DNA from: an uncultured Saprospiraceae bacterium
Lineage (GTDB): Bacteria; Bacteroidota; Bacteroidia; Chitinophagales; Saprospiraceae
Reading direction: 5' to 3'
Assembly: GCA_937921775.1 (NCBI GenBank)
Contig: CAKZUK010000018.1
Span: 26,345 to 90,344, forward strand
DNA length: 64,000 bases
A program made the position numbers and the translations under genes. Below the pieces are notes generated by a model. It did no database searches, was not told the origin of the DNA, and saw nothing but the letters and a program-made list of their open reading frames with translations. Each line of letters opens with the position of its first letter. Positions within the stretch are counted from its first letter, which is position 1. Below are positions 7,629-57,511 of this stretch, one piece after another.

Positions 7629-8387
7629 TCAAAGTTTAAAATACCTCAGCTGCTTCAGATTAGTTGTTCTACAGGTAAGCGCTCCAACAAAATTCTGCTT
7701 TACATCAAAAGAAACAAAGTCCCACTCCTTAGCTTCATGGTCATCCCAAGCCACTCGTCGTAGTGCTACTTGCTCTCCATCCAATATGCTTACTTCAAAT
7801 TGATCCAATGGCAGGCTCATTCCTTGCCCATGTCCTTTTATGAAAGCTTCCTTGCGTGTCCAACATTTGAAAAATGAATTTAGCTGATCTTTTGGAGCTA
7901 GTTGCAAAATGGTTTTAGCTTCCTCTTTTGAAAAGAACCGATCCGCTAATTTTGCCACTTCAATTTCTTTTTTGACTTGTTCTATATCTACTCCAATCTC
8001 TGCCTCTTTTACAAATCCAAAGAGTCCCATTCCTCCTGAATGAGAAATATTGAACTGTAGCGATTGATTCTCTTGAGCTAATGATGGTTTACCAAATGAG
8101 CTGTAAGTGAACTGAATAAAGGAAGGAGAAATTTTTAAATAGCCAGCAAGTAATTTCCGCAAAGTTCCTCTAGCTGTTATGTAGCTAATCCTATCTTTCT
8201 CAAAACGAAATAAGTTGGATCGATCTTTTTCTTCCTTTGACAAGTAAGTCCAAAATTGTGCTAAAGGCAAGCCGGAAGATTCCAAATTTGCACACCATAG
8301 ATGTGCTTCCTGTTTTTCTAAAACAGGGAAAGTACTCGGTTCTGTTTCCCAAATATTATCAGCTAATGACTGGTGTTGACGATGCAT
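7629..8387 (-). CDS. Sfp-type 4'-phosphopantetheinyl transferase of the NRPS cluster
   Basis: This 252-residue enzyme has the family motifs FNISHS (112-117), IGVDIE (131-136) and WTRKEAFIKGHG (176-187). It would convert the carrier domains of the two NRPSs and the stand-alone carrier at 23754 to their active holo forms. It overlaps the 3' end of the upstream NRPS gene by 25 bp (8363-8387), so it is the last gene of a leftward operon (ABC exporter, HupE, NRPS, transferase) and is translationally coupled to it. It is larger than the transferase at 3923-4558 and clearly distinct, which suggests one dedicated enzyme per carrier-protein system. Confidence 0.93.
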   Translation of the reverse strand: MHRQHQSLADNIWETEPSTFPVLEKQEAHLWCANLESSGLPLAQFWTYLSKEEKDRSNLFRFEKDRISYITARGTLRKLLAGYLKISPSFIQFTYSSFGKPSLAQENQSLQFNISHSGGMGLFGFVKEAEIGVDIEQVKKEIEVAKLADRFFSKEEAKTILQLAPKDQLNSFFKCWTRKEAFIKGHGQGMSLPLDQFEVSILDGEQVALRRVAWDDHEAKEWDFVSFDVKQNFVGALTCRTTNLKQLRYFKL

Positions 8388-14057: not shown

Positions 14058-15305
14058 TTAAATTAATCCCAGTACACCATTGTACATTTTCCAAAAGTAA
14101 GCACCTAGAGGAAGGTCTACTTCAAATGCGCGCTCGATAAACCAATAGATAGAAATGAAGATCAGTACCATGGAACCATACTTGATCAAAGCAGGGTATA
14201 ATTTTAGCTTTCGAATTAAATACAAGATTGGAAAAATCATACAAATGATAAGCACCTGTCCTAATTCAACTCCTACATTAAAACCTAACAAAGACAGTGT
14301 CATATAATCACCACTCAAACCTTTCTCACCTAATACACTCGCAAAACCAAATCCATGAAATAATCCAAAACCAAAAACGATTAGCCATTCCTTCGACTTG
14401 ATGATTGGCTTAATATTATGGAAAGCCGCTAATGCAATCGATAGTGCAATGATAGATTCTACAAACCAAGATGGCAAATTGACATAACCAAAAGCTGCTA
14501 AAGCTAGGGTAATGGAATGCGAGATGGTGAAGAATGTTACGATCTTTAAAATGTAAATGAACGCAGGTTTAAATCGCTCGACTGGCAACCAATTGTCATT
14601 TGCAGTTGAAAGTGAGAGTGGAATTTCTGCATCATTTCGGCGGCGAACAACGGCAGGTAAAATCAATGCCACGATAAACAAAATATGGTCTAGTCCTATC
14701 CAAATATGCCAAATACCTAATCTTACTAAAGCAACGAACCCCTTCCAAATAGAAGCATCAGCTAATGATAAAGATTGCTGTGTTTTGTCTGGACTATAAA
14801 TGTTGGAAATCAATGCTTCATTGTCAACAATACCTAATTTCCAATTGTATTCAATAATTAACATCCCTCGATGCTTGTCGTCTTTGTCAAAAAGGACATT
14901 GTAAAAAATATCTAATTCTTCGGGCACTTTGCTTACCCCTTCTAAATCAAAATGAAATCGAACAAAGTCTTCCATCTCTTCCAGATTCAAAACAGTAGGC
15001 TCAGTGAACTTTACAACATACTGTTCTCCTAAGTTCGATTTAATATTGGAGCGACTTATTAAATATTGGTTGACCATAGCTAGATGTGGCTGAACCAATT
15101 CCATGGTTAATTTATCCGGGAGGTTTAATCCCAAAGCCTTATTCATATCCTTTGCTGTCATCTCAAATCGTCCGCCAATAGCGTCCTTATAAATCCTAAG
15201 GTAAAGATAACTCTGATCAGGGGAGTGAGCCTCTATCGTCGACGGAAAAAGAAAGCAAGTAATTAATGAAAAGAGAACTAGTGATTGTTTAAAGTAGGCA
15301 TTCAT
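14058..15305 (-). CDS. HupE/UreJ-like membrane protein, putative metal permease
   Basis: This is a 415-residue protein with an N-terminal signal peptide (about 1-26, cut near TIEAHS). A periplasmic domain of about 170 residues follows, then six or seven membrane segments from about residue 190. The membrane part has the HupE/UreJ_2 hallmarks: WHIWIGLDHILF near 198 and FGLFHGFGFASVL near 315, with several His and Asp residues able to bind metal. Relatives are linked to nickel or cobalt handling and often lie near TonB receptors of the type at 17592. It sits in an operon between the ABC exporter (14 bp upstream) and the NRPS gene (19 bp downstream). This supports, but does not prove, a metal-related product. 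Confidence 0.82.
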   Translation of the reverse strand: MNAYFKQSLVLFSLITCFLFPSTIEAHSPDQSYLYLRIYKDAIGGRFEMTAKDMNKALGLNLPDKLTMELVQPHLAMVNQYLISRSNIKSNLGEQYVVKFTEPTVLNLEEMEDFVRFHFDLEGVSKVPEELDIFYNVLFDKDDKHRGMLIIEYNWKLGIVDNEALISNIYSPDKTQQSLSLADASIWKGFVALVRLGIWHIWIGLDHILFIVALILPAVVRRRNDAEIPLSLSTANDNWLPVERFKPAFIYILKIVTFFTISHSITLALAAFGYVNLPSWFVESIIALSIALAAFHNIKPIIKSKEWLIVFGFGLFHGFGFASVLGEKGLSGDYMTLSLLGFNVGVELGQVLIICMIFPILYLIRKLKLYPALIKYGSMVLIFISIYWFIERAFEVDLPLGAYFWKMYNGVLGLI

Positions 15306-15319
15306 TGGTGTACAACGTT

Positions 15320-17038
15320 TTATGAAAGTTTTACCATCGTTTTGAAAGTTTCACTTGATTCGACTAAGTCTTCGTAAGTACCTTTTGCAGCTATTTTTCC
15401 TTTGTCTAAAATATAGATACAATCGGCATGTTTGACTGTAGACAAACGATGGGCGATAATAATAGTGGTTATATCTTTTGGTAATGTTTTGAGTGATTCT
15501 ATGACACTTTTTTCAGTAATGCTATCTAGAGCGCTGGTCGCTTCATCTAGAATTAAAACAGAAGGGGAGGCATAAAGTGCTCTCGCCAAACCTAGTCGCT
15601 GACGTTGGCCTCCACTTATTCGAACACCTCTATCACCGATGTTTGTTTCAAATCCTTCAGGAAGTGTTTTATTTATAAACTGGTAGATATCAGCTAGTTG
15701 ACAGACCTTTTTGAGTCGATCATAGTCAATATCTTCCTTGTTATCTCCAAGGGTAATGTTTCGGGCAATACTATTGTCAAACAAAAAAACTTCCTGAGGA
15801 ACATAAGCTATTTGCTTTTGCCATCCATTCATATTAGCAGCAGAGAGTCTTGCCCCATCTACTTTTATGTTGCCGTTGGAAGGTTCAAGTAAACCAACAA
15901 TCAGATCGATGAGGGTCGTTTTTCCAGATCCAGTAGAACCGATAAAAGCAATGGTCTGCCCTTTTTCTATTGAAATATTTAAATTGTCAATGATGGGATC
16001 TTGCGTCGTTTCGTATTTGAATTGGATTAAGTCTATTGTTATCTCATTCTTGAAAGGAATAGCTTTTATGTTAGAATTATTTTCAAATGTTTCGAAGGAC
16101 GATGATTCATTCTCCAAGTCTAGATCACTATAAAGCTTATCTACGATGGGGAGATTGTGCTTCAATTTAGCAAGGGCAGCAAATATTTTTTGCAAAGCGG
16201 GGAGTAGTCGATATCCAGCCACAGCATACAAACTCAAGCGAGGTAAAGCTAACTGTATATCACCGGATGAAATGAAAAGATAGATGGTAACTCCTAGTAT
16301 ACTTCCAAATGCAAGAAACTCTAGTAAGCTCCGAGGAATGGCAAGTAAGAGATTGTATTTTGGTTGAATATTAGAAAATTCTTTGGAAGCATAAGCGTAG
16401 CGTTGGTAAAAGAAGTCGTGCTTGTTATAGACCATTATTGTTTTGATTCCATCAAATGCCTCTTTTAAAGTTTTATAACGAAGTAAGTTCATCTCAATTC
16501 GGTGTTTGCCAATTTTCTTGAGATAATTTTTTTGAGATAGATAAATCAAAACATAAGCACTTCCAAGGCCTCCAAACATAACCATTGCTATGCTAGGGTC
16601 GACCATCACAAGGAGTGATAAAATAATGATGGCTACAAATGATCTGGAAAATATTTCGATAATAGGAACTATTACACCGCCAGTTAAACTTCCAACTTCA
16701 TTTATAATGTAGGCCTGTAGTTTAGAAGTATTGGTATACAAATAAAAGGAGTAAGGTTTGTTGAGATAAGAAGCTAAGAGGCGCGTACTCAAATTATGGG
16801 CAATCTCCCAAGAGAATTTATATTGTAGCCACGTTGTAAAAACAGATAATATATTGGTTAGTGCAATCAGGACGATGATACTCACACCAGAGTATATCAA
16901 CATTTGCTTCAAGCTTTCAAACTCAAAGAATGTATAGGCCCCTGACAACCACCTGTTCTCAACTATGGCATTTGGTTCAGCCATTAACTGCATGAAGGGA
17001 AGAATAGAAGCGACTCCAATTACTTCCAGAAATCCCAT
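15320..17038 (-). CDS. ABC exporter, fused membrane and ATPase domains (5' end uncertain)
   Basis: A half-size exporter of 572 residues from the first ATG. The membrane domain has about six segments up to residue 310. The ATPase domain has Walker A GSTGSGKTT (about 367), the signature SGGQRQRLGLARAL (about 475), Walker B LILDEATSAL and an H-loop IIAHRLSTV. It would dimerise in the inner membrane and export the peptide or an intermediate. The frame stays open upstream to a stop at 17180-17182, and the extra residues (such as KRLLHIFTTGEKIKFVWL) look like the normal start of this family and complete the first membrane helix. That extension contains no ATG, GTG or TTG. Either a rare start codon is used or the start has been damaged. 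It leads the leftward operon. Confidence 0.9.
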   Translation of the reverse strand: MGFLEVIGVASILPFMQLMAEPNAIVENRWLSGAYTFFEFESLKQMLIYSGVSIIVLIALTNILSVFTTWLQYKFSWEIAHNLSTRLLASYLNKPYSFYLYTNTSKLQAYIINEVGSLTGGVIVPIIEIFSRSFVAIIILSLLVMVDPSIAMVMFGGLGSAYVLIYLSQKNYLKKIGKHRIEMNLLRYKTLKEAFDGIKTIMVYNKHDFFYQRYAYASKEFSNIQPKYNLLLAIPRSLLEFLAFGSILGVTIYLFISSGDIQLALPRLSLYAVAGYRLLPALQKIFAALAKLKHNLPIVDKLYSDLDLENESSSFETFENNSNIKAIPFKNEITIDLIQFKYETTQDPIIDNLNISIEKGQTIAFIGSTGSGKTTLIDLIVGLLEPSNGNIKVDGARLSAANMNGWQKQIAYVPQEVFLFDNSIARNITLGDNKEDIDYDRLKKVCQLADIYQFINKTLPEGFETNIGDRGVRISGGQRQRLGLARALYASPSVLILDEATSALDSITEKSVIESLKTLPKDITTIIIAHRLSTVKHADCIYILDKGKIAAKGTYEDLVESSETFKTMVKLS

Positions 17039-17591: not shown

Positions 17592-19802
17592 ATGAAAGTT
17601 GTTTTTACAGTTCTTCTTTTTTTTTACCTACCTCTTCTTTTAAATGGCCAAAATTTAATAGGCCTAATTGTCGACGAATCCAATGAGCCAATCGTTGGCG
17701 CATATGTGATTAACCACAGTAAAGATTTTCATACACACACCAACGATCTCGGACAGTGCATCCTCAAAGATGCCGACATCGGTGATACATTAAAAATAAT
17801 GCATCTCGGATATGAGACGCTTGATTTTGTCATTGATAATTCTGATGGGAAAATTAAAATCACATTGATCGAATCATTTTTTGATTTGGGAGAAGTTGTT
17901 GTTGGGCAAAACGCTAAGAAAATTAATATCATCGCAGCAATCGATATTAACACCGCTCCTGTTCGTTCTTCTCAAGAATTTTTACGCAAAGTACCGGGCC
18001 TTTTTATTGGTCAACATGCCGGAGGAGGTAAAGCTGAACAAATCTTCCTAAGAGGTTTTGATATTGATCACGGTACCGATGTTTCGATCTCTGTAGATGG
18101 GATGCCAGTCAATATGGTCTCTCATGCACATGGACAAGGATATGCCGACATGCATTTTATTATTCCTGAAACTATTGATGAAATCGACTTTGGGAAAGGA
18201 CCATATTACTCTGATAAAGGGAATTTTACTACTGCTGGTTATGTTGGATTCAAAACCAAAGACAAGTTAGAAAACTCACAAATTACCATCGAAGGAGGAC
18301 GATTTAATTCGCTTAGAACGGTTGGTTTGCTAAAACTATTAGACAGTGAAAAACACGATATTTATCTAGCCTCAGAGTATATGTTATCTGATGGACATTT
18401 TGAGTCTTCTCAAAATTTTGTTCGCAATAATTTCATGCTCAAATATGCTGGAGAACTTCCGGACAAAAGTCGAATCTCAGCCTTAGTTTCTAATTTTTCA
18501 AGTAAGTGGGATGCATCGGGACAAATTCCACAAAGATCTGTAGATCAGGGTGATATAACTAGGTTTGGCGCCATTGACGATACCGAAGGTGGCAATACAG
18601 GAAGAACCAATATAGCGGTAACTTACAATCGACCACTTAGCGACAATACCTATATTAAAAACAATATTTACTATTCTCTTTACGATTTTGAACTTTACTC
18701 AAATTTTACATTTTTTCTTAATGATTCGATCAACGGCGATCAGATCAGACAGAAAGAAAATCGTAAGATTTTTGGATTTGAAAGTGTGTGGAATCATTCC
18801 ACATTTATTAAAAATGCAAGTACACTTTTTCAACTTGGGGTAGGACTGCGAGCGGATCAAATAAATGACAACGAACTCTCAAGCACGCTCAATCGAAAGA
18901 CTACATTAAAGAGCCATCAATTGGGAGATGTCGATGAAAAAAACCTTTATGCTTTTGCGGATATTTCCTTTGATGTAGGAGATTGGCTATTTCAACCATC
19001 TGTTCGATTTGATTATTTTAAGTTTAATTATGTCAATGACCTAATTGGTATTTATAAGAACGACGGTCAATCAAAAGGATTTATTAGCCCCAAGTTTAGT
19101 ACGGTTTATAACTTGAATAATAAAGTACAATTATATTTCAATACTGGAGTTGGATTTCACTCCAATGATAGCCGTGTTATTATTGAAGAAGTTGAGAAAT
19201 CAATTATTCCTGCTGCTTATGGAGCGGATTTAGGTGCTTTTATCAAGCCAATACCTCGGCTATTCACAAACCTTGCAGTATGGTGGTTAGCATTGGAGCA
19301 GGAGTTTGTATATGTAGGTGATGAAGGAGTTGTAGAGCCTAGCGGTAGTACTCGTCGTTTGGGTTTGGACTTTACATTTAGATATCAACTTAACGATTGG
19401 ATCTTTGCCAATGGAGATTTTAATTATGCCTTTGCGCGTAGTAATGTTTCTGAAGACAATCTCATCCCCTTGGCTCCAGTTATCACAACTACTGGAGGAC
19501 TTATTTTCAACAGGAAAAAGATAAATGCTGCTATTAATTTCCGATTCCTCAAGGATAGACCAGCTAATGAAGACAATAGTATTGTCGCCCAAGGCTACTT
19601 TATAACAGACCTAAACGCAAATTATAATTTTGAAAAAATAAGTATTGGATTCTCTATTGAGAATTTGCTTAATCAGAGTTGGAATGAAACTCAATTTGCT
19701 ACAGAAACTCGTCTTCAGTTCGAACCAACTCCTACGGAAGAAATTCATTTTACTCCAGGTACTCCTTTCTTTATCAAAGGAATCATGAAGTATCATTTTT
19801 AG
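17592..19802 (+). CDS. TonB-dependent outer-membrane receptor with histidine-rich plug
   Basis: This is a 736-residue receptor. A signal peptide (about 1-19) is followed by a CarboxypepD_reg-like domain (about 20-105) typical of Bacteroidota receptors, then a plug domain (about 115-240) and a 22-strand-type barrel ending in Phe (KYHF). The plug carries RGFDIDHGTD near 154, then GMPVNMVSHAHGQGYADMHF, a His-rich segment typical of a receptor subfamily often found beside HupE/UreJ genes and proposed to import nickel or similar metals. It opens the rightward arm of the NRPS cluster, 18 bp before the cyclodeaminase-like gene, so the natural product is likely a ligand re-imported through it, or the cluster responds to the same metal. 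Substrate is inferred. Confidence 0.92.
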   Translation: MKVVFTVLLFFYLPLLLNGQNLIGLIVDESNEPIVGAYVINHSKDFHTHTNDLGQCILKDADIGDTLKIMHLGYETLDFVIDNSDGKIKITLIESFFDLGEVVVGQNAKKINIIAAIDINTAPVRSSQEFLRKVPGLFIGQHAGGGKAEQIFLRGFDIDHGTDVSISVDGMPVNMVSHAHGQGYADMHFIIPETIDEIDFGKGPYYSDKGNFTTAGYVGFKTKDKLENSQITIEGGRFNSLRTVGLLKLLDSEKHDIYLASEYMLSDGHFESSQNFVRNNFMLKYAGELPDKSRISALVSNFSSKWDASGQIPQRSVDQGDITRFGAIDDTEGGNTGRTNIAVTYNRPLSDNTYIKNNIYYSLYDFELYSNFTFFLNDSINGDQIRQKENRKIFGFESVWNHSTFIKNASTLFQLGVGLRADQINDNELSSTLNRKTTLKSHQLGDVDEKNLYAFADISFDVGDWLFQPSVRFDYFKFNYVNDLIGIYKNDGQSKGFISPKFSTVYNLNNKVQLYFNTGVGFHSNDSRVIIEEVEKSIIPAAYGADLGAFIKPIPRLFTNLAVWWLALEQEFVYVGDEGVVEPSGSTRRLGLDFTFRYQLNDWIFANGDFNYAFARSNVSEDNLIPLAPVITTTGGLIFNRKKINAAINFRFLKDRPANEDNSIVAQGYFITDLNANYNFEKISIGFSIENLLNQSWNETQFATETRLQFEPTPTEEIHFTPGTPFFIKGIMKYHF

Positions 19803-19820: not shown

Positions 19821-20942
19821 ATGAGCGCAAAAAAATTGAAAACCTTAGTTCTTTCGGCATCAGATATTGAAGAGATTGTGAGATCTGTTGGTATTGATGA
19901 AATCATGGATGAGTTAATAGAAAAGATGACTATTGCATTCAAAACCTATAATAAAGACAAAACTAAGATTCCAGTCCGCTCAGGTTTTAATTATGAGCAA
20001 CCCCAAAAAGGACTGATCGAATGGATGCCACTTTTTGACAAAGAAAAAAATCAGGTTATAGTTAAAATGGTGGGCTACCATCCAGACAATCCTAATGACT
20101 TTCAACTTCCTACTATCGTTTCTACCATTTCTTGCTACGACACCAAGACTGGCCATTTAAAAGGCTTGACCGACGGTGTCTTCCTCACGGCCTTACGGAC
20201 GGGAGCAGCATCTGCAATGGCGACCAAAGTAATGTCCCATCCAGAAAGTTCCACCTTGGGTTTGATTGGTTGCGGTGCGCAATCGATTACTCAACTACAT
20301 GCTATTTCAAGAGTTTTTAAGCTCAAAAAGGTATTGTATTATGATAACGACATAGAGACTAGGGAATCTTTTTCTAGTAGGGTAGCCATGCTGAATTTGG
20401 ATATCGAATTAGTTTTCACAAACATAAAAGAGATTGTAAAAGACTCAGACATCATTACCACAGCTACTTCTATTAATATTGGAGAAGGACCACTTTTCGA
20501 TCAAATTGAGAGCAAATCTTGGTTGCATATTAACGCTGTTGGATCTGACTTTCCGGGTAAAACGGAACTACCTTTAAGCTTCCTAAAAAACAGTTTTGTT
20601 TGTCCTGACTTTTTAGCACAAGCTGTTGTAGAAGGTGAATGCCAACAATTAGATGCCAGCGATATTGGACCCGAGTTTTTTGAATATATTCAAAATAAAG
20701 AAAAATATAGTGAGGCAGTCAGACAGTCAAGTGTTTTTGATTCTACTGGTTTGCCATTGGAAGACCAAGTGGTGATGGAGATGTTTTTAGCTTATGCAGA
20801 AAAGATGAAATTAGGCCAAGAGATAGGTATAGAACAAGTCCCGATGGATGCCAAAAGTCCATATGATTTTATGTACATGCAAGATGCGATTGTTATTAAA
20901 CAAACAGTCCCATTGGAAGATTTAAATAAGAAAGTTCTTTAA
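19821..20942 (+). CDS. Ornithine cyclodeaminase / mu-crystallin family enzyme
   Basis: This 373-residue NAD(P)-binding protein has the family substrate-site segment (VKMVGYHPDNP), the RTGAASAMATKVM helix near 127-140, and the dinucleotide-binding loop LGLIGCGAQSI near 145. Members cyclise ornithine to proline, reduce ketimines, or (SbnB) take part in 2,3-diaminopropionate synthesis. Here it precedes PltE-, PltF- and PltL-like genes that act on prolyl groups, so supply of L-proline or a cyclic imino acid from ornithine is the best guess. No SbnA-like PLP enzyme is present in the window, which argues against diaminopropionate. It lies 18 bp after the receptor and 89 bp before the dehydrogenase. 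Confidence 0.82.
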   Translation: MSAKKLKTLVLSASDIEEIVRSVGIDEIMDELIEKMTIAFKTYNKDKTKIPVRSGFNYEQPQKGLIEWMPLFDKEKNQVIVKMVGYHPDNPNDFQLPTIVSTISCYDTKTGHLKGLTDGVFLTALRTGAASAMATKVMSHPESSTLGLIGCGAQSITQLHAISRVFKLKKVLYYDNDIETRESFSSRVAMLNLDIELVFTNIKEIVKDSDIITTATSINIGEGPLFDQIESKSWLHINAVGSDFPGKTELPLSFLKNSFVCPDFLAQAVVEGECQQLDASDIGPEFFEYIQNKEKYSEAVRQSSVFDSTGLPLEDQVVMEMFLAYAEKMKLGQEIGIEQVPMDAKSPYDFMYMQDAIVIKQTVPLEDLNKKVL

Positions 20943-21031: not shown

Positions 21032-22183
21032 ATGGATTTCTCCTGGCCAGAAGAATATTTAAAATTCAAAGAAGAAACAATTCAATTTGCAAAAAGCGAA
21101 CTAAATGAAGGGACCCTTGAACGAGATGAAGCTCAGCTATTCTCTGTAGAGCTTTGGAAGAAATGTGCTGCATTTGGAATACAGGGTTTGTCCATTCCAA
21201 AAGTCTATGGCGGAGCGCTGGAAGAAGTTGATTTTTTACGCTCAATGTTGGCAATGGAAGGCTTGGGCTATGGTTGTAAGGACAATGGTTTACCTTTCGG
21301 GCTAAACGCACAAATGTGGACTGTGCAAACACCAATAGTGCACTTTGGTAACGAAGCACAAAAACAAAAATACCTTCCAAAAATGGCTGCTGGCACCATG
21401 ATCGGTGCGCATGCATTGACAGAACCTGAAGCGGGCTCAGATATTTTTAGCATGCAAATGACAGCCACGAAAGTAAAAGGCGGTTATTTATTAAACGGGA
21501 AAAAACATCTAATTACTTTTGCGCCAATTTGCGATATGGTACTCGTTTTTGCTAATGCAAATCCTAAACTGGGACGTTGGGGTGTTTCTGCATTTTTAGT
21601 AGACAAAGGTACGCCAGGCTTTACTGCAAGTGATAAAAAAAGTAAAATGGGACTGCGTTCGATTCCTATCGGAGACCTTGAGTTCAAGGACTGCCTCGTA
21701 CCTGAAGAAAACATGCTTGGAAAGATGGGTTTAGGCTTCAGTATTTTAAATCACTCACTGGAATATGATCGCTGTTGCATTCTCGCATCTCAGCTAGGAG
21801 CAATGGAACGGCAGCTCGACCAAACGATTGAATACTCGAAAAAGAGACACCAATTTAAGCAACCAATAGCTTCTTTTCAATCCGTTTCTAATCGAATCGT
21901 TGATATGAAATTACGGCTAGAAACTTCCAGATTGCTTTTGCAAAAAACAGCCTGGCTAAAGAAAAATGGCGACTCCGCTATGCTGGAAGCAGCTTTACTT
22001 AAGCTTCAACTAAGTGAATCATTTGTAACTTCTAGTTTGGACGCCATGCGTACTTTTGGAGGTCAAGCATTCTTAACCGAAAACGGTATCGAAAAGGATT
22101 TAAGAGATGCCGTTGGTGGTGTCCTTTATGCAGGAACCTCTGATATTCAACGCAACATTATTGCAAAATTATTAGGCCTTTGA
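21032..22183 (+). CDS. PltE-like acyl-CoA dehydrogenase, probable carrier-bound prolyl oxidase
   Basis: This 383-residue flavoprotein has the acyl-CoA dehydrogenase fold and FAD-binding segment (ALTEPEAGSDI near 129-139, GTSDIQRNIIAKLL at the C terminus). Its middle and end resemble PltE of pyoluteorin biosynthesis strongly: MGLRSIPIGDLEFKDCLVPE, then GAMERQLDQTIEYSKKRHQF. PltE oxidises L-prolyl-S-carrier to pyrrole-2-carbonyl-S-carrier. The gene's stop overlaps the start of the adenylating enzyme by four bases (TTGA), and the carrier follows, giving the same E-F-L set as in pyoluteorin and prodigiosin loci. Two-electron oxidation only, as in anatoxin biosynthesis, is the main alternative. 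Confidence 0.85.
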   Translation: MDFSWPEEYLKFKEETIQFAKSELNEGTLERDEAQLFSVELWKKCAAFGIQGLSIPKVYGGALEEVDFLRSMLAMEGLGYGCKDNGLPFGLNAQMWTVQTPIVHFGNEAQKQKYLPKMAAGTMIGAHALTEPEAGSDIFSMQMTATKVKGGYLLNGKKHLITFAPICDMVLVFANANPKLGRWGVSAFLVDKGTPGFTASDKKSKMGLRSIPIGDLEFKDCLVPEENMLGKMGLGFSILNHSLEYDRCCILASQLGAMERQLDQTIEYSKKRHQFKQPIASFQSVSNRIVDMKLRLETSRLLLQKTAWLKKNGDSAMLEAALLKLQLSESFVTSSLDAMRTFGGQAFLTENGIEKDLRDAVGGVLYAGTSDIQRNIIAKLLGL

Positions 22184-23751
22184 TCTACTTATTACCACAT
22201 ACCATCTCTAACTCTGCTAAGCAATTTCCTGACAGAGATGCCTTCTCTTGCGGCAATTCTAGTTTAACCTATTGTCAAATGGAGCAGCGAATGAATCAAG
22301 TCGCTAATGTTCTTCATCAAGTGGGGATTAAAAAAGGAGACCGCGTTGGCATCTATCTCAATCGATGTATCGAAACGGCTATTGCGATGTATGGCATCAT
22401 GCAAGCAGGCGCTGTGTATGTTCCCATTGATCCAAAAGCTCCAGCTTCTAGAAGTCGTTTTTTAATTGAAGATTGTGAAATTGATATTTTAATAAGTCAA
22501 ACCACTCAAAAAAGAAATCTTGAAAAAATTGTTGAAGGACCAACAAGGATTAAATCGATTATTGGTTTTGACAAGGAACTAGAAGCGGTGAATTGTATTT
22601 CATGGAAACAAGTATTTGAGCATTCAGATCAATTCAAATTGCCTTTCCGATTACTCGAAAAAGACCTGGCCTACATTATTTACACTTCTGGTTCTACTGG
22701 GCAACCAAAAGGAATCATGCACAGCCATTATAGTGGATTAAGTTATGCTCGTCTTGCTGCATCTGTTTACAATCTTAATGAAAACGATCGAATTGGCAAT
22801 CATGCTCCCATTCATTTTGACATTTCAACATTGGGTTATTTTGCGAGTCCTTTTGTGGGAGCTTGTACAGTAATTGCATCAGATGCACATACTATTTTTC
22901 CCGCAAGTCTTGCTAGCCTGATCGAAAAGGAAGCAATCACAGTTTGGTACTCTGTCCCTTTGGCTTTAATTCAATTATTGCAAAATGATGTACTACGAAA
23001 TAAAAAAATAGATAGCTTAAGATGGGTATTATATGGAGGGGAACCCTTTCCTCCAAAGTATATAAAAGAACTGATGGAAAGATGGCCTAATGCTCGTTTT
23101 AGCAATGTGTATGGCCCTGCAGAAGTCAACCAATGTACTTATTATCATTTCGATACACCGCCCATTAATGATGAGCCTATTCCAATTGGAGAAGTCTGGG
23201 ACAACACAGATTTCCTTATTTTGAATGAATATGATGAACCCGTAATTCCGGGTGAAATAGGTTTGCTACTCATTCGAAGTGCCACACAAATGAAAGGCTA
23301 TTGGAATAATCCTGACTTAACTGAGAAGTCACTTTATAAATCAATATCTGGACATGAGACTCAATTGTTTTACCGATCAGGTGATCTAGTTAAAATGGAT
23401 CAAGATGGTAAAATGCATTTTCTTGGCAGAAAAGATTTTCAAGTTAAAATAAGAGGACATAGAGTGGAACTGGATGCGGTGGAGGCATCTTTACTTGCGC
23501 ATAACTTAGTATCTGAAGCTGCGGTATACGCTGTTCAGATTTCTGCAGAAAGCAAACAAATTGAAGCTGCTGTGATACTAAAGCCACAGGTCAATTTATC
23601 AGAAGATGAGCTTAAATTTTTTCTAAAAGATAAATTGCCTTTATATGCAGTTCCTGAAAAAATAACTTTTGTTGAGGAATTCCCTAGAACAACTTCTGGC
23701 AAAATAAAGAGGTCAGCTATCGCTGCCACCTTATCAAACGCGAATAATTAA
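22180..23751 (+). CDS. PltF-like stand-alone adenylating enzyme (prolyl-AMP ligase type)
   Basis: This 523-residue ATP-dependent ligase activates an amino acid and loads it on a carrier protein. It has the ATP-binding YTSGSTGQPKG near 168, the GPAEVNQCT region, YRSGD and the C-terminal Lys in TSGKIKR. The segments NHAPIHFDIST, VWYSVPLAL and GGEPFPPKY are characteristic of PltF-type prolyl ligases. My manual specificity residues read D-I-L-Y-L-G-V-Q-C-K, close to the PltF set D-L-L-Y-L-A-L-V-C-K but not identical, so proline or a close analogue is expected. The start is TTG at 22180, overlapping the dehydrogenase stop as TTGA; no nearby ATG is in frame. The carrier gene follows after 2 bp. Confidence 0.85.
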   Translation: MIYLLPHTISNSAKQFPDRDAFSCGNSSLTYCQMEQRMNQVANVLHQVGIKKGDRVGIYLNRCIETAIAMYGIMQAGAVYVPIDPKAPASRSRFLIEDCEIDILISQTTQKRNLEKIVEGPTRIKSIIGFDKELEAVNCISWKQVFEHSDQFKLPFRLLEKDLAYIIYTSGSTGQPKGIMHSHYSGLSYARLAASVYNLNENDRIGNHAPIHFDISTLGYFASPFVGACTVIASDAHTIFPASLASLIEKEAITVWYSVPLALIQLLQNDVLRNKKIDSLRWVLYGGEPFPPKYIKELMERWPNARFSNVYGPAEVNQCTYYHFDTPPINDEPIPIGEVWDNTDFLILNEYDEPVIPGEIGLLLIRSATQMKGYWNNPDLTEKSLYKSISGHETQLFYRSGDLVKMDQDGKMHFLGRKDFQVKIRGHRVELDAVEASLLAHNLVSEAAVYAVQISAESKQIEAAVILKPQVNLSEDELKFFLKDKLPLYAVPEKITFVEEFPRTTSGKIKRSAIAATLSNANN

Positions 23752-23753
23752 TT

Positions 23754-23993
23754 ATGGATCAAACAATTATAAAATACATCATAGAAAACCTTCACGGAGG
23801 AAGAAAGGATTTAGAAATCGAAGCTGAAGATGATCTACTGGGAGGTGGTTTGATAGAGTCTATGGCCATGATGAGACTCATTCAATTTATTGAGACGGAG
23901 TACGAATTAAAAATCCCTCCTCAGGATATGACTATCGAAAATTTCATGACGGTCTCAGCTATGGTTGATTATATTCAGCGGGTGAAAGTGTAG
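23754..23993 (+). CDS. Stand-alone peptidyl carrier protein (PltL-like)
   Basis: This small acidic helical protein of 79 residues has the phosphopantetheine attachment Ser36 in GGGLIESMAMMRL. It would carry the amino acid loaded by the adenylating enzyme encoded 2 bp upstream, present it to the dehydrogenase for oxidation, and hand the product to the condensation domain of the downstream NRPS. It is activated by one of the two phosphopantetheinyl transferases, most likely the one in the NRPS operon. Family assignment is firm; the acyl cargo is inferred from the neighbours. Confidence 0.93.
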   Translation: MDQTIIKYIIENLHGGRKDLEIEAEDDLLGGGLIESMAMMRLIQFIETEYELKIPPQDMTIENFMTVSAMVDYIQRVKV

Positions 23994-24104: not shown

Positions 24105-27100
24105 ATGAACCAGTCAGTTAAAAATATAGACACAAGCTTTGAGTTAACTAAAAGTCAGCTCTTAATGTGGATGGGTCAAAAATTGAAACCAGCGTCTCCG
24201 ATGTACAACATGGCGACTTCTTTCGATATCCATGCATCTATCGATGAGTCTGCTTTCGTAAAGGCATTTCAACTGCTTTTGCAACAATGCGATGCCATGC
24301 GCACCGTTTTCTTTAGTGTAGACGAGGTCCCTCAACAAAAGATCATCGCCAACTTTCAATTCGAAATGGAAGTTCTCGATTTTTCACAAAATACAAATGC
24401 ACTTTTAAATTTAGCTGCTTGGAAAAAATTAAGAAGTCAAAAAATATTTGATATCTCCGACTGCTTATTTGATTCAGTGCTCATAAAGTTAAGTCCCGAT
24501 CATTATATCTGGTATTTCAACCAACACCATCTAATCACCGACGCTTGGGCTGTAACCGTACAATTTCAAGCAATGGCTAAATTGTATCAGGCTCAATTGA
24601 ATGAAATAGACTTAACTCATTGGTCCTTGCCAAAATTCCAAGACTACTTAAGCCAAGCGAATGAGTCCTGTAATGATCCCGCTCAGCAGATGGCACAGGC
24701 TCACTGGAAAGAAAAGGTTTCGACAATGCCTGATTTTTCAAAATTCTACCAAGAGTCAAATCTTGAATTGGAAAGTAAGTCAATTCGAATTAGTGTCCGT
24801 CTAGGTAAAGAAAAATCTGACCAATTGAGAGCGATGACAATGGAGTCTGATTTAAGAGCATGGACACAGCACCTTTCTTTATTTTCTGTTTTCCAAACCA
24901 TCCTGTATACTTACATTTACCGGATCACTGGGCAGCAAAAATTAGCTATAGGAGCTCCAGCTCATAATCGATCAACCTTATCGTTCAAACAAACACCAGG
25001 GCTATTTATCGAATTGTTTCCGCTTGTGGCGGAAATTGAAAACGATGAATCCTTTAGCTCCTTATTTCAGAAAGTAAGAAACGAATCGCTTAGCTTTCTA
25101 AAATATGCACAAGCCAACACTAGTACACCTGAACTCAATCGGAGCTTCAATGTAGTTTTGAATTATATCAATGCGGCTTTCTCTGATTTCAATGACATTC
25201 CAACGAGCACCGAATGGGTGCATGCCGATCACGCTGACCCTGGACATCATATGCGGCTACAAGTGCATGACTTTAATGCATCCGGTGACATTGAATTGTG
25301 TTTTGATCTAAACACCGCCGTATTTAATTCAGCTCAAATTTCCGCAACACCGCAACACTTTATACGTCTACTGGATGGATTTATAGAAGATCGTTTTCAA
25401 TCCATTGAAAAACCTCCTTTACTTATTTCAGAAACGAATGCAATTCTTGCAAAATCAGATAGCTTCGTTTTTGAATCATCGAAATCAGTCATTGACTTGT
25501 ATCATCAATCAGTAAGCAAGTCGACGGATAATATTGCCATTCGCTACCAAGAAATAGCTCTAAGCTACCGTGAATTGGATGCTCATGTAAATCAACTAAG
25601 CAATTACCTTAAGGACAATGGCTTAGTGAGCAATGATCGTGTCGCTATCTACCTCAATCGTTCGCCAGAATTTGTGATCAGTGTTTTGGCAGTGCTGCAA
25701 TTGGGCGCAACTTTTGTGCCTATCCCTGTGAACTATCCTTCGGGAAGAGTGCTTGGAATTATTGAAGATGCACAAGCGAAATTCATTCTAAGTAATTCGG
25801 TTTTACTAAAGAAACTTCCCGTAGATTTCAAAAATAAAATTGCTCTAGATAAAGAATCTGCATTTATCCAGCAGCAAAACATCGCATTCGATAAGCAAGA
25901 AATAGCTCCAGAACAATTAGCTTACCTCATGTATACTTCCGGTTCTACCGGAAAGCCGAAAGGTGTAATGATTGGGCATGCTGCCTTATCTCATTATATT
26001 CAATGGGCTGCATACAAATATGTTGACGGGATTTTACCGGTGATGCCTTTGTTTACTTCTACTGGTTTTGATTTAACAATCACTTCACTGTTTCTACCTT
26101 TGATTTCAAATGGTGTGCTCGTTACTTATCCTGAAGCAGAGGAAGGTCCAGACTTTTCCTTGTTTAAGGTCATGGAAGACAACTTAGTTAATCTAATAAA
26201 ACTAACTCCTTCCCATATTGAATTGCTTAGAAGTGGCAACTATAAAAGTTCATCCATTCAAACAATGATCGTTGGAGGAGAGAATTTCAAAACAGATCAA
26301 GCAGAACTAATTCATAGCCAATTGAATGATTCGGTCGCCATTTACAATGAGTATGGTCCTACAGAAGCAAGCGTTGGTTGTGTGGTACATCAATACAATC
26401 CAAAGCTTGACAAAGATAATTCTTCTGTTCCAATTGGTTTACCCATTTCAAATGTTCCGGTTTATATTTTAGATAAATTTTTGAATGTAGTTCCAAAGGG
26501 CGTACCTGGCGAATTGTATATCAGTGGACTAGGCTTGGCAAAAGGTTATTGGGGACAAGAGGAATTGACTAGTGCTCAGTTTATAGCGAATCCATTTGAT
26601 GCCAACACAAGCTTGTATCGATCGGGTGATTTAGTTCGTCAACATCCGGATGGTCATATCGAATATTTTGGTCGAAAAGATTTACAAGTAAAAATTCGAG
26701 GACGTCGAGTAGAACTCGCTGAAATAGAAACAGTACTAAATAAGCACCCTGAGCTCAAACAAGGAGTTGTTGAATTACGGGAAAGACGAAAGGCGAAATA
26801 TACCGAAGCGATTCACAATTGTAGTGCCTGTGGATTGCCCTCTAATTATCCAAATGCTAGCTTTAATAAAGAGGGTGTTTGTAATCTTTGCCAAGACTTT
26901 GAAAGTTATCAGCAAAAGGTAAGTAAGTACTTTAAAACAGAGGAGGACTTAACGAAATTATTCAATAGTGTAGCTCCAGTTGACAAAGGAGAATACGATT
27001 GTTTGGCGCTTTTAAGTGGAGGTAAAGACAGTACTTACGTACTAGGGCAGTTGGTTGAATTAGGATTTCGTCCATTGGCATTTACCTTGGATAATGGTTA

Positions 27101-28289
27101 CATTTCAGAAGAAGCTAAAGAAAATGTTAGACGAGTGGTGACTGACCTTGGAGTGGATCATGTATTTGGAAGTACACCTGAAATGAACGCCATTTTTGTG
27201 GACAGTTTACAACGACATTGCAATGTTTGTGATGGTTGCTTTAAAACCATTTACACGCTCAGTGTACAATTAGCGCTGGAGAAAAACATTCCCTTTATCG
27301 TAACGGGCTTGTCAAGAGGTCAGTTTTTTGAAACACGTTTGACCGAAGAATTGTTTAGAAAAGATGATGTAGATATAGATAAAATTGATGCAACGATCTT
27401 GAATGCTAGGAAAGCTTATCACCAAGTAGATGATGCGGTGAAAAAATTGTTGGATACTTCAATGTTTGAAGATGAAAGTGTTTTTGAGAAAATACAGTTT
27501 GTAGATTACTATCGCTATACCGATGTTAGTCTTGCTGAAATGTTAGAATATTTAGACAGCAAATTGTCATGGGTTCGTCCTTCAGATACAGGACGTTCTA
27601 CGAATTGTTTGATTAATCAGGCGGGGATTTATGTACACAAAAAAGAATTAGGCTATAGTAATTATGCTTTTCCATATAGTTGGGATGTAAGAATTGGACA
27701 TAAAACCAGATCGGCATCACTAGACGAAATCAACGAAGCAATTGACGAGCCTGAAGTTGAAAAAATACTAAAGGAAATAGGGTACACTGCTGCACAGACT
27801 GCAACTAATCGCGACGAGCAATTAGTTGCCTATTATGTTGGTTCAGCTGAAGTGACAGAAATAGAATTAAGATCTTATTTGCTTAAGTATTTTCCTGATT
27901 ATATGGTTCCTGTTCAATTCATCCAACTTGAGCATATGCCACTCACCGTTAATGGTAAAATCAACCGAGAGGCACTACCAGAACCAGACCGCATCCGACC
28001 TGTATTGGAGATGGAATACGTCGAGCCAGAAACAGAATTTGAAGTAATGATCCGCGACATTTGGTCTGAGGTGATGCAAATTGACCGGATAGGTGTGCAT
28101 GATAATTTTATTGATATAGGTGGTGATTCACTGAGTGGTATTCGTGTCGTTAGTCGTATAAATGAAGGAATGGAATTGGACTTACCAGTTAATATTATTT
28201 TCCAACATACTACCATCGCCCAATTGGCAGAATATGTACAGGGAGTTATAATGAAGCTATTAGAAGAATTAGAAAAGTCTGATTCTTAA
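24105..28289 (+). CDS. NRPS module C-A-T with a PP-loop amidotransferase-like domain inserted in the adenylation domain
   Basis: The 1394-residue protein starts with a condensation domain (about 10-440, HHLITD at 141-146). The adenylation domain follows (about 460-1300) with YTSGSTGKPKG from 610. Specificity residues read D-L-T-K-I-G-E-V-G-K, the classical asparagine code. Between core motif A8 (GRRVELAEIE, 866-875) and the return of adenylation sequence (QLVAYYVG, from 1239) lies an insert of about 340 residues. It holds a Cys4 zinc ribbon (C906, C909, C926, C929), a PP-loop SGGKDST (971-977) and a CNVCDGC cluster (1039-1045), an arrangement like N-acetyl-sugar amidotransferases (WbpG/PseA type). 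The adenylation domain then finishes normally (FPDYMVP, NGKINREALP), followed by a carrier domain with Ser1342. The insert may modify the Asn side-chain amide, for example to amidine or thioamide. The gene lies 111 bp after the carrier gene. Confidence 0.95.
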   Translation: MNQSVKNIDTSFELTKSQLLMWMGQKLKPASPMYNMATSFDIHASIDESAFVKAFQLLLQQCDAMRTVFFSVDEVPQQKIIANFQFEMEVLDFSQNTNALLNLAAWKKLRSQKIFDISDCLFDSVLIKLSPDHYIWYFNQHHLITDAWAVTVQFQAMAKLYQAQLNEIDLTHWSLPKFQDYLSQANESCNDPAQQMAQAHWKEKVSTMPDFSKFYQESNLELESKSIRISVRLGKEKSDQLRAMTMESDLRAWTQHLSLFSVFQTILYTYIYRITGQQKLAIGAPAHNRSTLSFKQTPGLFIELFPLVAEIENDESFSSLFQKVRNESLSFLKYAQANTSTPELNRSFNVVLNYINAAFSDFNDIPTSTEWVHADHADPGHHMRLQVHDFNASGDIELCFDLNTAVFNSAQISATPQHFIRLLDGFIEDRFQSIEKPPLLISETNAILAKSDSFVFESSKSVIDLYHQSVSKSTDNIAIRYQEIALSYRELDAHVNQLSNYLKDNGLVSNDRVAIYLNRSPEFVISVLAVLQLGATFVPIPVNYPSGRVLGIIEDAQAKFILSNSVLLKKLPVDFKNKIALDKESAFIQQQNIAFDKQEIAPEQLAYLMYTSGSTGKPKGVMIGHAALSHYIQWAAYKYVDGILPVMPLFTSTGFDLTITSLFLPLISNGVLVTYPEAEEGPDFSLFKVMEDNLVNLIKLTPSHIELLRSGNYKSSSIQTMIVGGENFKTDQAELIHSQLNDSVAIYNEYGPTEASVGCVVHQYNPKLDKDNSSVPIGLPISNVPVYILDKFLNVVPKGVPGELYISGLGLAKGYWGQEELTSAQFIANPFDANTSLYRSGDLVRQHPDGHIEYFGRKDLQVKIRGRRVELAEIETVLNKHPELKQGVVELRERRKAKYTEAIHNCSACGLPSNYPNASFNKEGVCNLCQDFESYQQKVSKYFKTEEDLTKLFNSVAPVDKGEYDCLALLSGGKDSTYVLGQLVELGFRPLAFTLDNGYISEEAKENVRRVVTDLGVDHVFGSTPEMNAIFVDSLQRHCNVCDGCFKTIYTLSVQLALEKNIPFIVTGLSRGQFFETRLTEELFRKDDVDIDKIDATILNARKAYHQVDDAVKKLLDTSMFEDESVFEKIQFVDYYRYTDVSLAEMLEYLDSKLSWVRPSDTGRSTNCLINQAGIYVHKKELGYSNYAFPYSWDVRIGHKTRSASLDEINEAIDEPEVEKILKEIGYTAAQTATNRDEQLVAYYVGSAEVTEIELRSYLLKYFPDYMVPVQFIQLEHMPLTVNGKINREALPEPDRIRPVLEMEYVEPETEFEVMIRDIWSEVMQIDRIGVHDNFIDIGGDSLSGIRVVSRINEGMELDLPVNIIFQHTTIAQLAEYVQGVIMKLLEELEKSDS

Positions 28290-28295
28290 ATCGAT

Positions 28296-29660
28296 ATGGC
28301 AAAGATAATTTGTGCGACCAGCGGATTGACTGGAATTTTAAATGCAAGCTATCACCTGCTTGCTCGTTTAGAAAAGGCAGGTCATGAGGTGATTTATGCA
28401 TCCCCAAGACCTATTGAAGAAAAAGTAATTGAGCAAGGAATTCACTTCGTTCAACTACCAGAAATAATCAATGAGGAAGAAGCTGATATACCAGACTTTA
28501 AAGGGACGCTTCGGAAGTTCATGCGATTGAAGTATAAAATTGAAAATGCTGCGATAAGAAGGAGAAATGCATTAGAAAGAATTGATCCAAAAGCCTTTGA
28601 AAAGTTAATAATAGACGAGCAAGCAGACTTGCTAATTGTTGACATTGAATTGCATGAATATATTTTTAAAGCCTTTGGCAGAAAGTTACCAATGTTATTG
28701 TTGAGTCAATGGTTTTCTGTATGGAATCGAAAAGGCTTGCCCTATTTGTTGCATGATAGCATTCCTGGAAAAGGATGGCAAGGGCAAAGCTGGCGGATAC
28801 GTTTTTCATGGCAATGGATAAAACTAAGTCGATGGATAAAGTTTGCTAAAAAAGACTTTTTATCAGCTGGAACCAATAGGAGAACGGTCTTATTGGCATT
28901 GGCAAAACAAGAAGGTTTTCCGACTGAATATATCAAAGAAAATTATTGGCCAGGCCCCTTTACTTATGATCAATTGCCTGTGCTAAGTATGACAAATTTA
29001 GAAATGGAATTCCCACATGACCTGAGACCAAACTTACATTATATCGGTGCTATGGTTTGTGAAAGCAGAAAGGAAGTAAAGTTGAAGAAGGAAGAGAGGA
29101 CTAAATTGGAAGCGGCCTTCAATTACAAGCAAAAGAATAATGCGGCATTGATCTATTGCTCAGTGAGTACGCTACATAAAGGAGATCATCGTTTTATCAA
29201 AAAAATAATTAAGGCGGTTGGCTTTCAGAAAAAATGGGTTTTGATCATAGGATTGGGTGGTTTGATTGAGGATTCTTTCTTCGAAGAATTACCTAATAAT
29301 GTTTTTGCATTTAGTAAAGTTCCGCAATTGGAAGTCTTACAGAATGCAGACTGTTCAATCAACCATGGAGGGATTCATACCATCAATGAATGTATACATT
29401 TCAAAGTACCTATGCTGGTGTATTCTGGCAAAAGGTCTGATCAAAATGGATGCGCAGCAAGGGTGGAGTATCACCAACTTGGGATGATGGGAGACAAGGA
29501 CTTAGATGATCCAAAAGCAATGACTGAAAAGATAAATGAAATTTTAACAAACCCATTATATCAAAATAAAGTCGAGCAAATGCATCATCATTCAGTCAGG
29601 TATAAGCAAGATGCCATTTTGGAAAGTATAGTTAATGATATATTGAAAAAGACTAGCTAG
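28296..29660 (+). CDS. GT1-family (UGT/MGT-like) glycosyltransferase
   Basis: This is a 454-residue GT-B enzyme. The C-terminal half has the UGT-type donor-binding signature NHGGIHTINECIHFKVPML, and the N-terminal half has the ligand-binding Rossmann fold beginning AKIICATSGLTG. Relatives glycosylate natural products, carotenoids or lipids using UDP- or dTDP-sugars. It starts 6 bp after the NRPS stop, so it is co-transcribed and probably decorates the peptide. It could instead belong to the polysaccharide locus that begins 100 bp downstream, but GT1 enzymes are uncommon there. Confidence 0.85.
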   Translation: MAKIICATSGLTGILNASYHLLARLEKAGHEVIYASPRPIEEKVIEQGIHFVQLPEIINEEEADIPDFKGTLRKFMRLKYKIENAAIRRRNALERIDPKAFEKLIIDEQADLLIVDIELHEYIFKAFGRKLPMLLLSQWFSVWNRKGLPYLLHDSIPGKGWQGQSWRIRFSWQWIKLSRWIKFAKKDFLSAGTNRRTVLLALAKQEGFPTEYIKENYWPGPFTYDQLPVLSMTNLEMEFPHDLRPNLHYIGAMVCESRKEVKLKKEERTKLEAAFNYKQKNNAALIYCSVSTLHKGDHRFIKKIIKAVGFQKKWVLIIGLGGLIEDSFFEELPNNVFAFSKVPQLEVLQNADCSINHGGIHTINECIHFKVPMLVYSGKRSDQNGCAARVEYHQLGMMGDKDLDDPKAMTEKINEILTNPLYQNKVEQMHHHSVRYKQDAILESIVNDILKKTS

Positions 29661-57362: not shown

Positions 57363-57511
57363 AAAATAGTTATTTAGAGTCAGCAAGCCAGAGATAATAA
57401 TTGGAGCTTTTTTATTGGGAACACCCAAACTCCATGACTGATCAACAGGTTTTGATTATTGGCTTATACGATACTGTTTTCTTTGCTTCCCAAATAAATA
57501 TAACGTTTACA

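What the first reader, a model, noticed from the sequence alone, without database searches (positions are those of the whole stretch)
26781..27815. PP-loop amidotransferase-like domain inserted inside an asparagine-specific NRPS adenylation domain
Seen: between adenylation core motifs A8 (GRRVELAEIE, residues 866-875) and A9/A10 (FPDYMVP, NGKINREALP) there is an insert of about 340 residues with a Cys4 zinc ribbon (C906/909/926/929), SGGKDST (971-977) and CNVCDGC (1039-1045). Its order of motifs matches stand-alone N-acetyl-sugar amidotransferases (WbpG/PseA; TIGR03573), which adenylate an amide carbonyl and replace it with an amidine. The host adenylation code reads D-L-T-K-I-G-E-V-G-K, the textbook Asn code. 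Inference: the insert acts on the Asn side-chain amide while it is bound to the carrier, giving an amidine, or a thioamide if sulfur is the donor. The A8-A9 site is where methyltransferases are usually inserted; I know of no characterised case with a PP-loop enzyme.
Basis: partly seen in the sequence, partly recalled or inferred. Interest (0 to 1): 0.93.

Follow-up and report, generated by a model that had tools for sequence, protein, structure and literature searches.

The report
AMDH-type nitrile-forming domain in NRPS
A bacterial peptide-making enzyme carries, inside its asparagine-selecting domain, an ATP-using insert that, judging by published relatives, likely turns the bound asparagine side chain into a nitrile; such inserts are already known from the antibiotics cystobactamid and albicidin, but this one sits in a recurring gene cluster that seems uncharacterised and may make a metal-binding peptide.

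Summary
In detail: NRPS 24105-28289 is C-A-T with a ~340-residue PP-loop (AANH) domain between A8 and A9; the A code is DLTKIGEVGK (Asn). It is no assembly artefact: 2047 proteins of NRPS-like length match the insert; the 120 listed are 64-100% identical. Amidine formation and lack of precedent are not supported. By site, length, code and motif the insert matches the AMDH domain of cystobactamid CysH, which dehydrates carrier-bound Asn to beta-cyanoalanine (PMC7966384), and the AANH insert of albicidin AlbIV (PMC12283262). I infer a nitrile; isoasparagine is the main rival. HisH/HisF genes are absent from 13 of 13 Bacteroidota cluster loci. New here: three invariant cysteines (C1042, C1045, C1168) match the [4Fe-4S] pattern of CtaC and could explain the brown colour reported for CysH. 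The cluster recurs (prolyl ligase, carrier, prolyl dehydrogenase, HupE, often a TonB receptor); in 115 of 120 long homologues the next module could be read, always DS[AV]xVGEVW, closest to His. Likely product: (pyrroline/pyrrole)-cyanoalanine-X, perhaps a metallophore. A new member of a known domain family in an uncharacterised pathway.

The parts
24105..28289 (+). NRPS module C-A(AMDH-type insert)-T, 1394 aa
   Evidence: C 12-445, A 468-889 + 1238-1297, T 1316-1378
24138..25439 (+). condensation domain
   Evidence: PF00668 4.5e-55
25506..26771 (+). adenylation core, code DLTKIGEVGK (Asn)
26781..27824 (+). PP-loop/AANH insert, AMDH-type; inferred Asn amide dehydratase
   Evidence: PMC7966384
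26820..26891 (+). tetracysteine (zinc) ribbon C906/C909/C926/C929
   Evidence: each Cys 129 of 129; zinc in LpNASAT 8wex (PMC10607449)
27015..27032 (+). PP-loop SGGKDS 971-976
   Evidence: 129 of 129
27228..27239 (+). CxxC C1042/C1045, two of three candidate [4Fe-4S] ligands
   Evidence: 129 of 129; aligns with a CxxC of LarE 8cnz
27606..27608 (+). C1168 in GRSTNC, third candidate [4Fe-4S] ligand
   Evidence: 129 of 129, 120 of 120
27816..27995 (+). A-domain C-terminal part with A9/A10
   Evidence: PF13193 weak, below cut-off; 1amu alignment
28050..28238 (+). carrier (T) domain
   Evidence: PF00550 5.6e-15
23754..23993 (+). free-standing carrier protein for the starter
   Evidence: PF00550 2.1e-05; 12 of 12 other loci
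22180..23751 (+). free-standing adenylation enzyme, L-prolyl-carrier ligase type
   Evidence: 6o6e 1.8e-75 among its PDB relatives; code DILYLGVQCK
21032..22183 (+). prolyl-carrier dehydrogenase
   Evidence: best PDB relative 4irn prolyl-ACP dehydrogenase 2.4e-114; below the NCBIfam cut-offs
19821..20942 (+). ornithine cyclodeaminase family, inferred proline supply
   Evidence: PF02423 2e-57
17592..19802 (+). TonB-dependent receptor
   Evidence: PF07715; TonB-hemin model below cut-off
15320..17038 (-). ABC transporter, inferred exporter
   Evidence: PF00664/PF00005; homologue in 3 of 11 loci
14058..15305 (-). HupE/UreJ family protein
   Evidence: PF13795 1.4e-46; 11 of 11 other loci with flank
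8363..14038 (-). second NRPS C-A-T-C-T-TE, A code DSVLVGEVWK (His-like)
   Evidence: PMC12283262
7629..8387 (-). probable phosphopantetheinyl transferase
   Evidence: by reading the translation, no profile run; homologues near the G394, G444, G563 clusters
28296..29660 (+). MGT-type glycosyltransferase, possible tailoring
   Evidence: TIGR01426 5.4e-27, below cut-off; 6 of 12 loci

Best explanation
The insert is likely an AMDH-type ATP-pyrophosphatase domain, predicted to convert carrier-bound L-asparagine into beta-cyano-L-alanine, a nitrile, during assembly of a small peptide. Inferred steps: the A domain loads Asn on its own carrier; the insert adenylates the side-chain amide oxygen with ATP; AMP is eliminated, leaving the nitrile; the condensation domain joins it to a pyrroline- or pyrrole-2-carbonyl starter made from proline on the free carrier; the second NRPS adds a residue with a His-like code, and its thioesterase releases the peptide. 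The three invariant cysteines would hold a [4Fe-4S] cluster near the ATP site. The HupE protein and the TonB receptor suggest that the product binds a metal. Shown here: architecture, Asn code, invariant residues, predicted fold, gene content. Inferred: the reaction, the cluster, the product, its role.
Against: CysH and AlbIV sequences were not compared directly, so membership rests on published description, site, length, code and motif. Without CysJ, CysH also made some isoasparagine in vivo. The Cys triad recalls sulfur transfer as much as dehydration; and 5 of 26 stand-alone relatives also have it, 2 of these beside HisH/HisF genes, so it is not specific for nitrile formation. The Streptomyces relative has the domain outside an A domain, next to an A domain whose code, read by eye, is not Asn. 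The Roseovarius stretch lists no TonB receptor.
Confidence: 0.6

Rival explanations
1. Aminomutase: the insert isomerises carrier-bound Asn (possibly hydroxylated) to isoasparagine.
For: CysH AMDH does this in cystobactamid biosynthesis, weakly even without CysJ (PMC7966384).
Against: Efficient aminomutation there follows CysJ hydroxylation; no TauD-family gene in 8 of 9 genomes, and in the ninth not on the cluster contig.
Confidence: 0.2
2. Thioamide synthetase: adenylated amide attacked by sulfide held on a [4Fe-4S] cluster, giving thioasparagine or a backbone thioamide, a soft ligand suited to a copper or nickel metallophore.
For: CxxC...C triad invariant with spacing like CtaC, which thioamidates carrier-bound substrates with [4Fe-4S] (PMC6772006); CxxC aligns with LarE 8cnz; TtuA and NcsA among fold matches.
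Against: The closest described relatives by site and host (CysH, AlbIV) make nitriles; no sulfur-mobilising gene among the window's core genes that were scanned (CtaC's cluster also has none).
Confidence: 0.12
3. Amidine formation as proposed by the first reader.
For: Predicted fold and zinc ribbon closest to N-acetyl sugar amidotransferase 8wex.
Against: No HisH/HisF in 13 of 13 Bacteroidota cluster loci nor as extra strong copies in the own genome, whereas 15 of 26 stand-alone relatives have at least one nearby; the Roseovarius locus has a pair, but in a separate sugar amidotransferase operon. TIGR03573 score below cut-off; nitrile precedent.
Confidence: 0.05

Closest known systems
AMDH domain of CysH (cystobactamid)
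   Same: insert in an Asn-specific A domain, SGGKD ATP motif, works on carrier-bound Asn (published)
   Different: CysH is a stand-alone module that feeds CysK through the shuttle CysB and works with CysJ/CysQ; here a C-A-T module with a prolyl-type starter, and no TauD-type gene in the own genome; sequence not compared here
AlbIV insert (albicidin)
   Same: 342-residue AANH insert, code DLTKIGEVGK, cyanoalanine product (published statement)
   Different: pABA-type product with no HupE/prolyl starter (recalled); sequence not compared here
N-acetyl sugar amidotransferase (WbpG/WbuX/PseA; LpNASAT 8wex)
   Different: stand-alone, sugar substrate, often HisH/HisF nearby (15 of 26), 21 of 26 lack the Cys triad
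CtaC thioamide synthetase (closthioamide) and TtcA/TtuA/NcsA
   Same: PP-loop plus CxxC...C triad; CtaC also uses a carrier-bound substrate
   Different: CtaC is a separate protein and inserts sulfur; its sequence was not compared here
Interrupted A domains with methyltransferase (TioS 5wmm)
   Same: A8-A9 insertion site (PMC11355689)
   Different: unrelated inserted enzyme

Membership tests
AMDH domain (CysH/AlbIV type) | inserted in an A domain with Asn code | tested here: met
   125 of 129; 115 of 120 long homologues, 5 unreadable; the Streptomyces relative is an exception
AMDH domain (CysH/AlbIV type) | ~340-residue AANH domain with SGGKD | tested here: met
AMDH domain (CysH/AlbIV type) | sequence homology to CysH/AlbIV and the seven core regions | not tested
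   neither sequence was fetched; the supplementary figure was not available
AMDH domain (CysH/AlbIV type) | dehydration or aminomutation of carrier-bound Asn | not testable with these tools
   needs intact-protein MS
N-acetyl sugar amidotransferase (TIGR03573) | score over curated cut-off 203.2 | tested here: not met
   122.7 bits
N-acetyl sugar amidotransferase (TIGR03573) | CXXCXn[GN]XCXXC and SGGXDS | tested here: met
   definition in PMC10607449
N-acetyl sugar amidotransferase (TIGR03573) | HisH/HisF-type genes nearby (typical, not strictly defining) | tested here: not met
   0 of 13 Bacteroidota cluster loci, one of them a short contig
[4Fe-4S]-dependent AANH enzymes (TtcA/TtuA/CtaC) | three conserved Cys, CxxC...C, after the PP-loop | tested here: met
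   CtaC C154/C157/C284
[4Fe-4S]-dependent AANH enzymes (TtcA/TtuA/CtaC) | bound [4Fe-4S] cluster | not testable with these tools
peptide metallophore cluster | uptake and transport genes with the NRPS | tested here: met
   HupE 11 of 11, TonB-receptor homologue 8 of 11, two of these only 28-29% identical; none listed in the Roseovarius stretch
peptide metallophore cluster | metal binding by the product or metal-regulated expression | not testable with these tools
   product unknown; no regulatory site examined

The most novel reading that the evidence does not exclude
The AMDH family is a [4Fe-4S]-dependent branch of the PP-loop enzymes in which the cluster chemistry of tRNA thiolases and CtaC has been turned to amide dehydration; it makes cyanoalanine in a widespread, unrecognised family of proline-Asn*-His-like nitrile peptides that carry a metal back into the cell through TonB receptors and HupE, shared by Bacteroidota, marine Rhodobacterales and, for the two-module enzyme, Actinomycetota.
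Probability: 0.3. Interest if true: 0.78.

Novelty: new member of a known kind. Interest (0 to 1): 0.5.

Why it matters
The AMDH reaction has no known mechanism: its discoverers saw a brown protein, did not find the CxxCxxxC motif, and left the metal open. The invariant CxxC...C triad gives a concrete, testable cofactor hypothesis. The domain also marks a conserved two-module pathway in environmental bacteria; its product would be a nitrile peptide and perhaps a metal carrier, and the gene set is compact enough for heterologous expression.

Tried and rejected
Amidine: rejected as default (see rivals). Assembly join or frameshift: rejected. Role in the neighbouring polysaccharide: Wza, Wzc and NeuB homologues follow the cluster in 1 of 11 other Bacteroidota loci with flank (G444), so not part of the core; polysaccharide genes also lie near the Roseovarius cluster, unexplained. 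Cys triad as proof of sulfur transfer: rejected, because 2 of the 5 triad-bearing stand-alone relatives have HisH/HisF genes beside them. In that count 28 loci were fetched; L008 and L011 were dropped because the wrong frame was taken, leaving 26, five of which (L013, L017, L023, L025, L029) are 609-680 aa and may not be ordinary sugar amidotransferases; one search had first missed several by reading one strand. PDB sequence searches with the insert gave partial matches only; one search used rows with flanking A/T sequence and mostly found NRPS chains. The whole-module fold search was filled by A domains; the insert was therefore modelled alone. Sampling: phylum 62 of 392 genomes had any match, 2 of them NRPS-type by frame length and identity; family 11 of 199, another family 2 of 92, class 1 of 295, the own one, the last three at E<=1e-60. 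Downstream A codes: the first attempt read only 19 of 120; with looser thresholds read 115. The identity of residue X as His is tentative: the published His code DSALIAEVWK differs at positions 299 and 301. Cluster context was examined for 12 loci besides the window: of the 11 matching genomes, G571 and G581 were not fetched and G493 (fetched) was not analysed; G576 is the contig of L001, and L005 and L007 lie in the G563 and G203 contigs. Literature: (HupE/TonB or metallophore NRPS) listed two papers each, titles and abstract starts only, none evidently about this; searches found none; one search listed two off topic.
Full report
What is there. The gene at 24105-28289 encodes a 1394-residue NRPS module: condensation (12-445), adenylation (468-889 and 1238-1297) and carrier (1316-1378) domains. 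Between A8 and A9 lies a ~340-residue domain that matches TIGR03573 (N-acetyl sugar amidotransferase) over residues 905-1224 with E 2.2e-35, but at 122.7 bits against a cut-off of 203.2. The A code, read by motif position, is DLTKIGEVGK; across 129 proteins (120 listed plus 9 from fetched loci, some possibly the same protein) it is DLTKIGEVGK in 109, DLTKVGEVGK in 13, DLTKLGEVGK in 3, and one each of DLSKIGEVGK, DLTKIGEVGE, DLTKIGEIGK and one with the last position unreadable. The mapping of the ten positions onto GrsA was done by eye and from memory.

It is real and widespread. Searching with the insert, at the length range of the whole NRPS, gave 2047 proteins at E<=0.001; I saw only the 120 listed, at 64-100% identity and mostly ~1390 aa (the first is the window's own). 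Searching with the insert alone gave 541; the 120 listed look like fragments of the same modules, most with carrier or A-domain C-terminal matches, some labelled Chloroflexota, Gemmatimonadales, Actinomycetota, Pseudomonadota and Myxococcota (labels are the sources' own). The own genome has one match. At E<=1e-60 it is in 11 of 199 genomes of its family, 2 of 92 of another family and 1 of 295 of a class sample: scattered. A maximum-likelihood tree of 49 rows puts the 20 embedded domains and one Streptomyces relative on one side of a strongly supported branch (100/99; root at midpoint only, and the Streptomyces row is long).

What it is. The literature describes this kind of domain. In cystobactamid biosynthesis the stand-alone module CysH has an insert named AMDH that dehydrates carrier-bound Asn to beta-cyano-L-alanine in vitro, the shift disappearing when AMDH is deleted; after hydroxylation by CysJ it isomerises Asn to the isoasparagine form; [quoted passage not shown] A 2025 survey states that the Asn/cyanoalanine A domain of albicidin AlbIV, code DLTKIGEVGK, has a 342-residue insertion probably of the adenosine nucleotide alpha-hydrolase superfamily, suggesting that AlbIV turns Asn into cyanoalanine in situ (PMC12283262, passages). 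Site, length, host code and ATP motif agree with the window. I did not align CysH or AlbIV, so membership is strong but not sequence-tested.

Against reading that triad as a sign of one nucleophile: of 26 readable stand-alone relatives (28 fetched, 2 dropped), 5 have the triad, and 2 of these have HisH and/or HisF genes within about 1.5 kb of the match; of the 21 without it, 13 do. The Bacteroidota NRPS-type loci have none in 13 of 13 (one, L001, a short contig); the Roseovarius locus has a HisH/HisF pair, in a separate sugar amidotransferase operon. The own genome has one strong HisH match and one strong WbuZ/HisF match, on one contig as in a his operon.

The pathway. In 12 other Bacteroidota loci (one, L001, a short contig) the free adenylating enzyme and free carrier are present in 12 of 12; HupE in 11 of 11 with enough flank; the prolyl dehydrogenase and the ornithine cyclodeaminase homologue in 10 of 11; a TonB-receptor homologue in 8 of 11, two of them at 28-29% identity; the glycosyltransferase in 6 of 12; the ABC transporter in 3 of 11. 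The second NRPS, often cut by the fetched stretch, is seen in 11 of 11. The dehydrogenase's best solved relative is prolyl-ACP dehydrogenase 4irn (2.4e-114) and the ligase's relatives include L-prolyl-carrier ligase 6o6e (1.8e-75). In the exception, L002, the cyclodeaminase and dehydrogenase are both missing from the stretch held and the ligase code is DPFYLILACK against D[IM][LMF]YLG[VI]QCK in the other 12 of 13, which ties those genes to the starter unit and leaves the Asn module and HupE as the shared core. A Roseovarius plasmid has ligase, carrier, dehydrogenase, HupE and a single C-A(insert)-T-C-A-T-TE protein, but no TonB receptor listed in the 41 kb seen. Among 120 listed long homologues of it (of 725), 115 could be read at the insert-bearing A domain, all DLTK[VI]GEVG, and 115 at the next A domain, all DS[AV]xVGEVW (5 unreadable in each count). 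In the Bacteroidota loci the second NRPS reads DS[AV][LM][VL]GEVW in 10 of 10 readable, 1 unreadable. The nearest published code is His, DSALIAEVWK (PMC12283262), so His is my tentative reading. HupE context could not be checked for those 120 except the Roseovarius one.

How it most likely works. Asn is loaded, its side-chain amide is adenylated by the insert and AMP leaves to give the nitrile; the module then extends a pyrroline- or pyrrole-carbonyl starter and passes it to the second NRPS. No TauD-family gene is found in 8 of 9 genomes, and the ninth has it on other contigs, which by analogy with the cysJ deletion favours dehydration over isomerisation. The metallophore role rests on HupE and TonB genes alone; that HupE proteins carry nickel or cobalt is recalled knowledge.

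Verdict. The finding is real, but the arrangement is already known; the amidine reading is unlikely. What remains interesting is the iron-sulfur hypothesis for AMDH and the conserved, apparently uncharacterised pathway.

Noticed in passing
window 29764-57362: Large exopolysaccharide locus directly downstream with Wza, Wzc, NeuB, NeuC, NeuA and an asparagine-synthase-like gene (44889-46796); Wza, Wzc and NeuB homologues follow the cluster only in G444 among the other Bacteroidota loci.
   Followed up: partly
L062:18062-22112 (Streptomyces sp. NBC_01216 plasmid): AMDH-like domain at the N-terminus of a condensation-domain protein instead of inside an A domain, beside an A-T protein and asnB; the Cys triad is kept, by eye.
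   Followed up: partly
L009, L010, L016, L020, L030: A class of stand-alone sugar-amidotransferase-like proteins with the CxxC...C triad, two with HisH/HisF neighbours; possible iron-sulfur members of that family.
   Followed up: partly
L002 (Poritiphilus flavus): Cluster variant without cyclodeaminase and prolyl dehydrogenase in the stretch held and with a changed ligase code, so probably a different starter.
   Followed up: partly
window 57401-58876: Cytochrome P450 at the end of the polysaccharide locus; no link to the NRPS cluster shown.
   Followed up: no
L004:11477-11947 and L002:11500-11937: Related small proteins between the NRPS and the TonB receptor; the L004 copy has no Pfam match and an HQHE stretch.
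   Followed up: no
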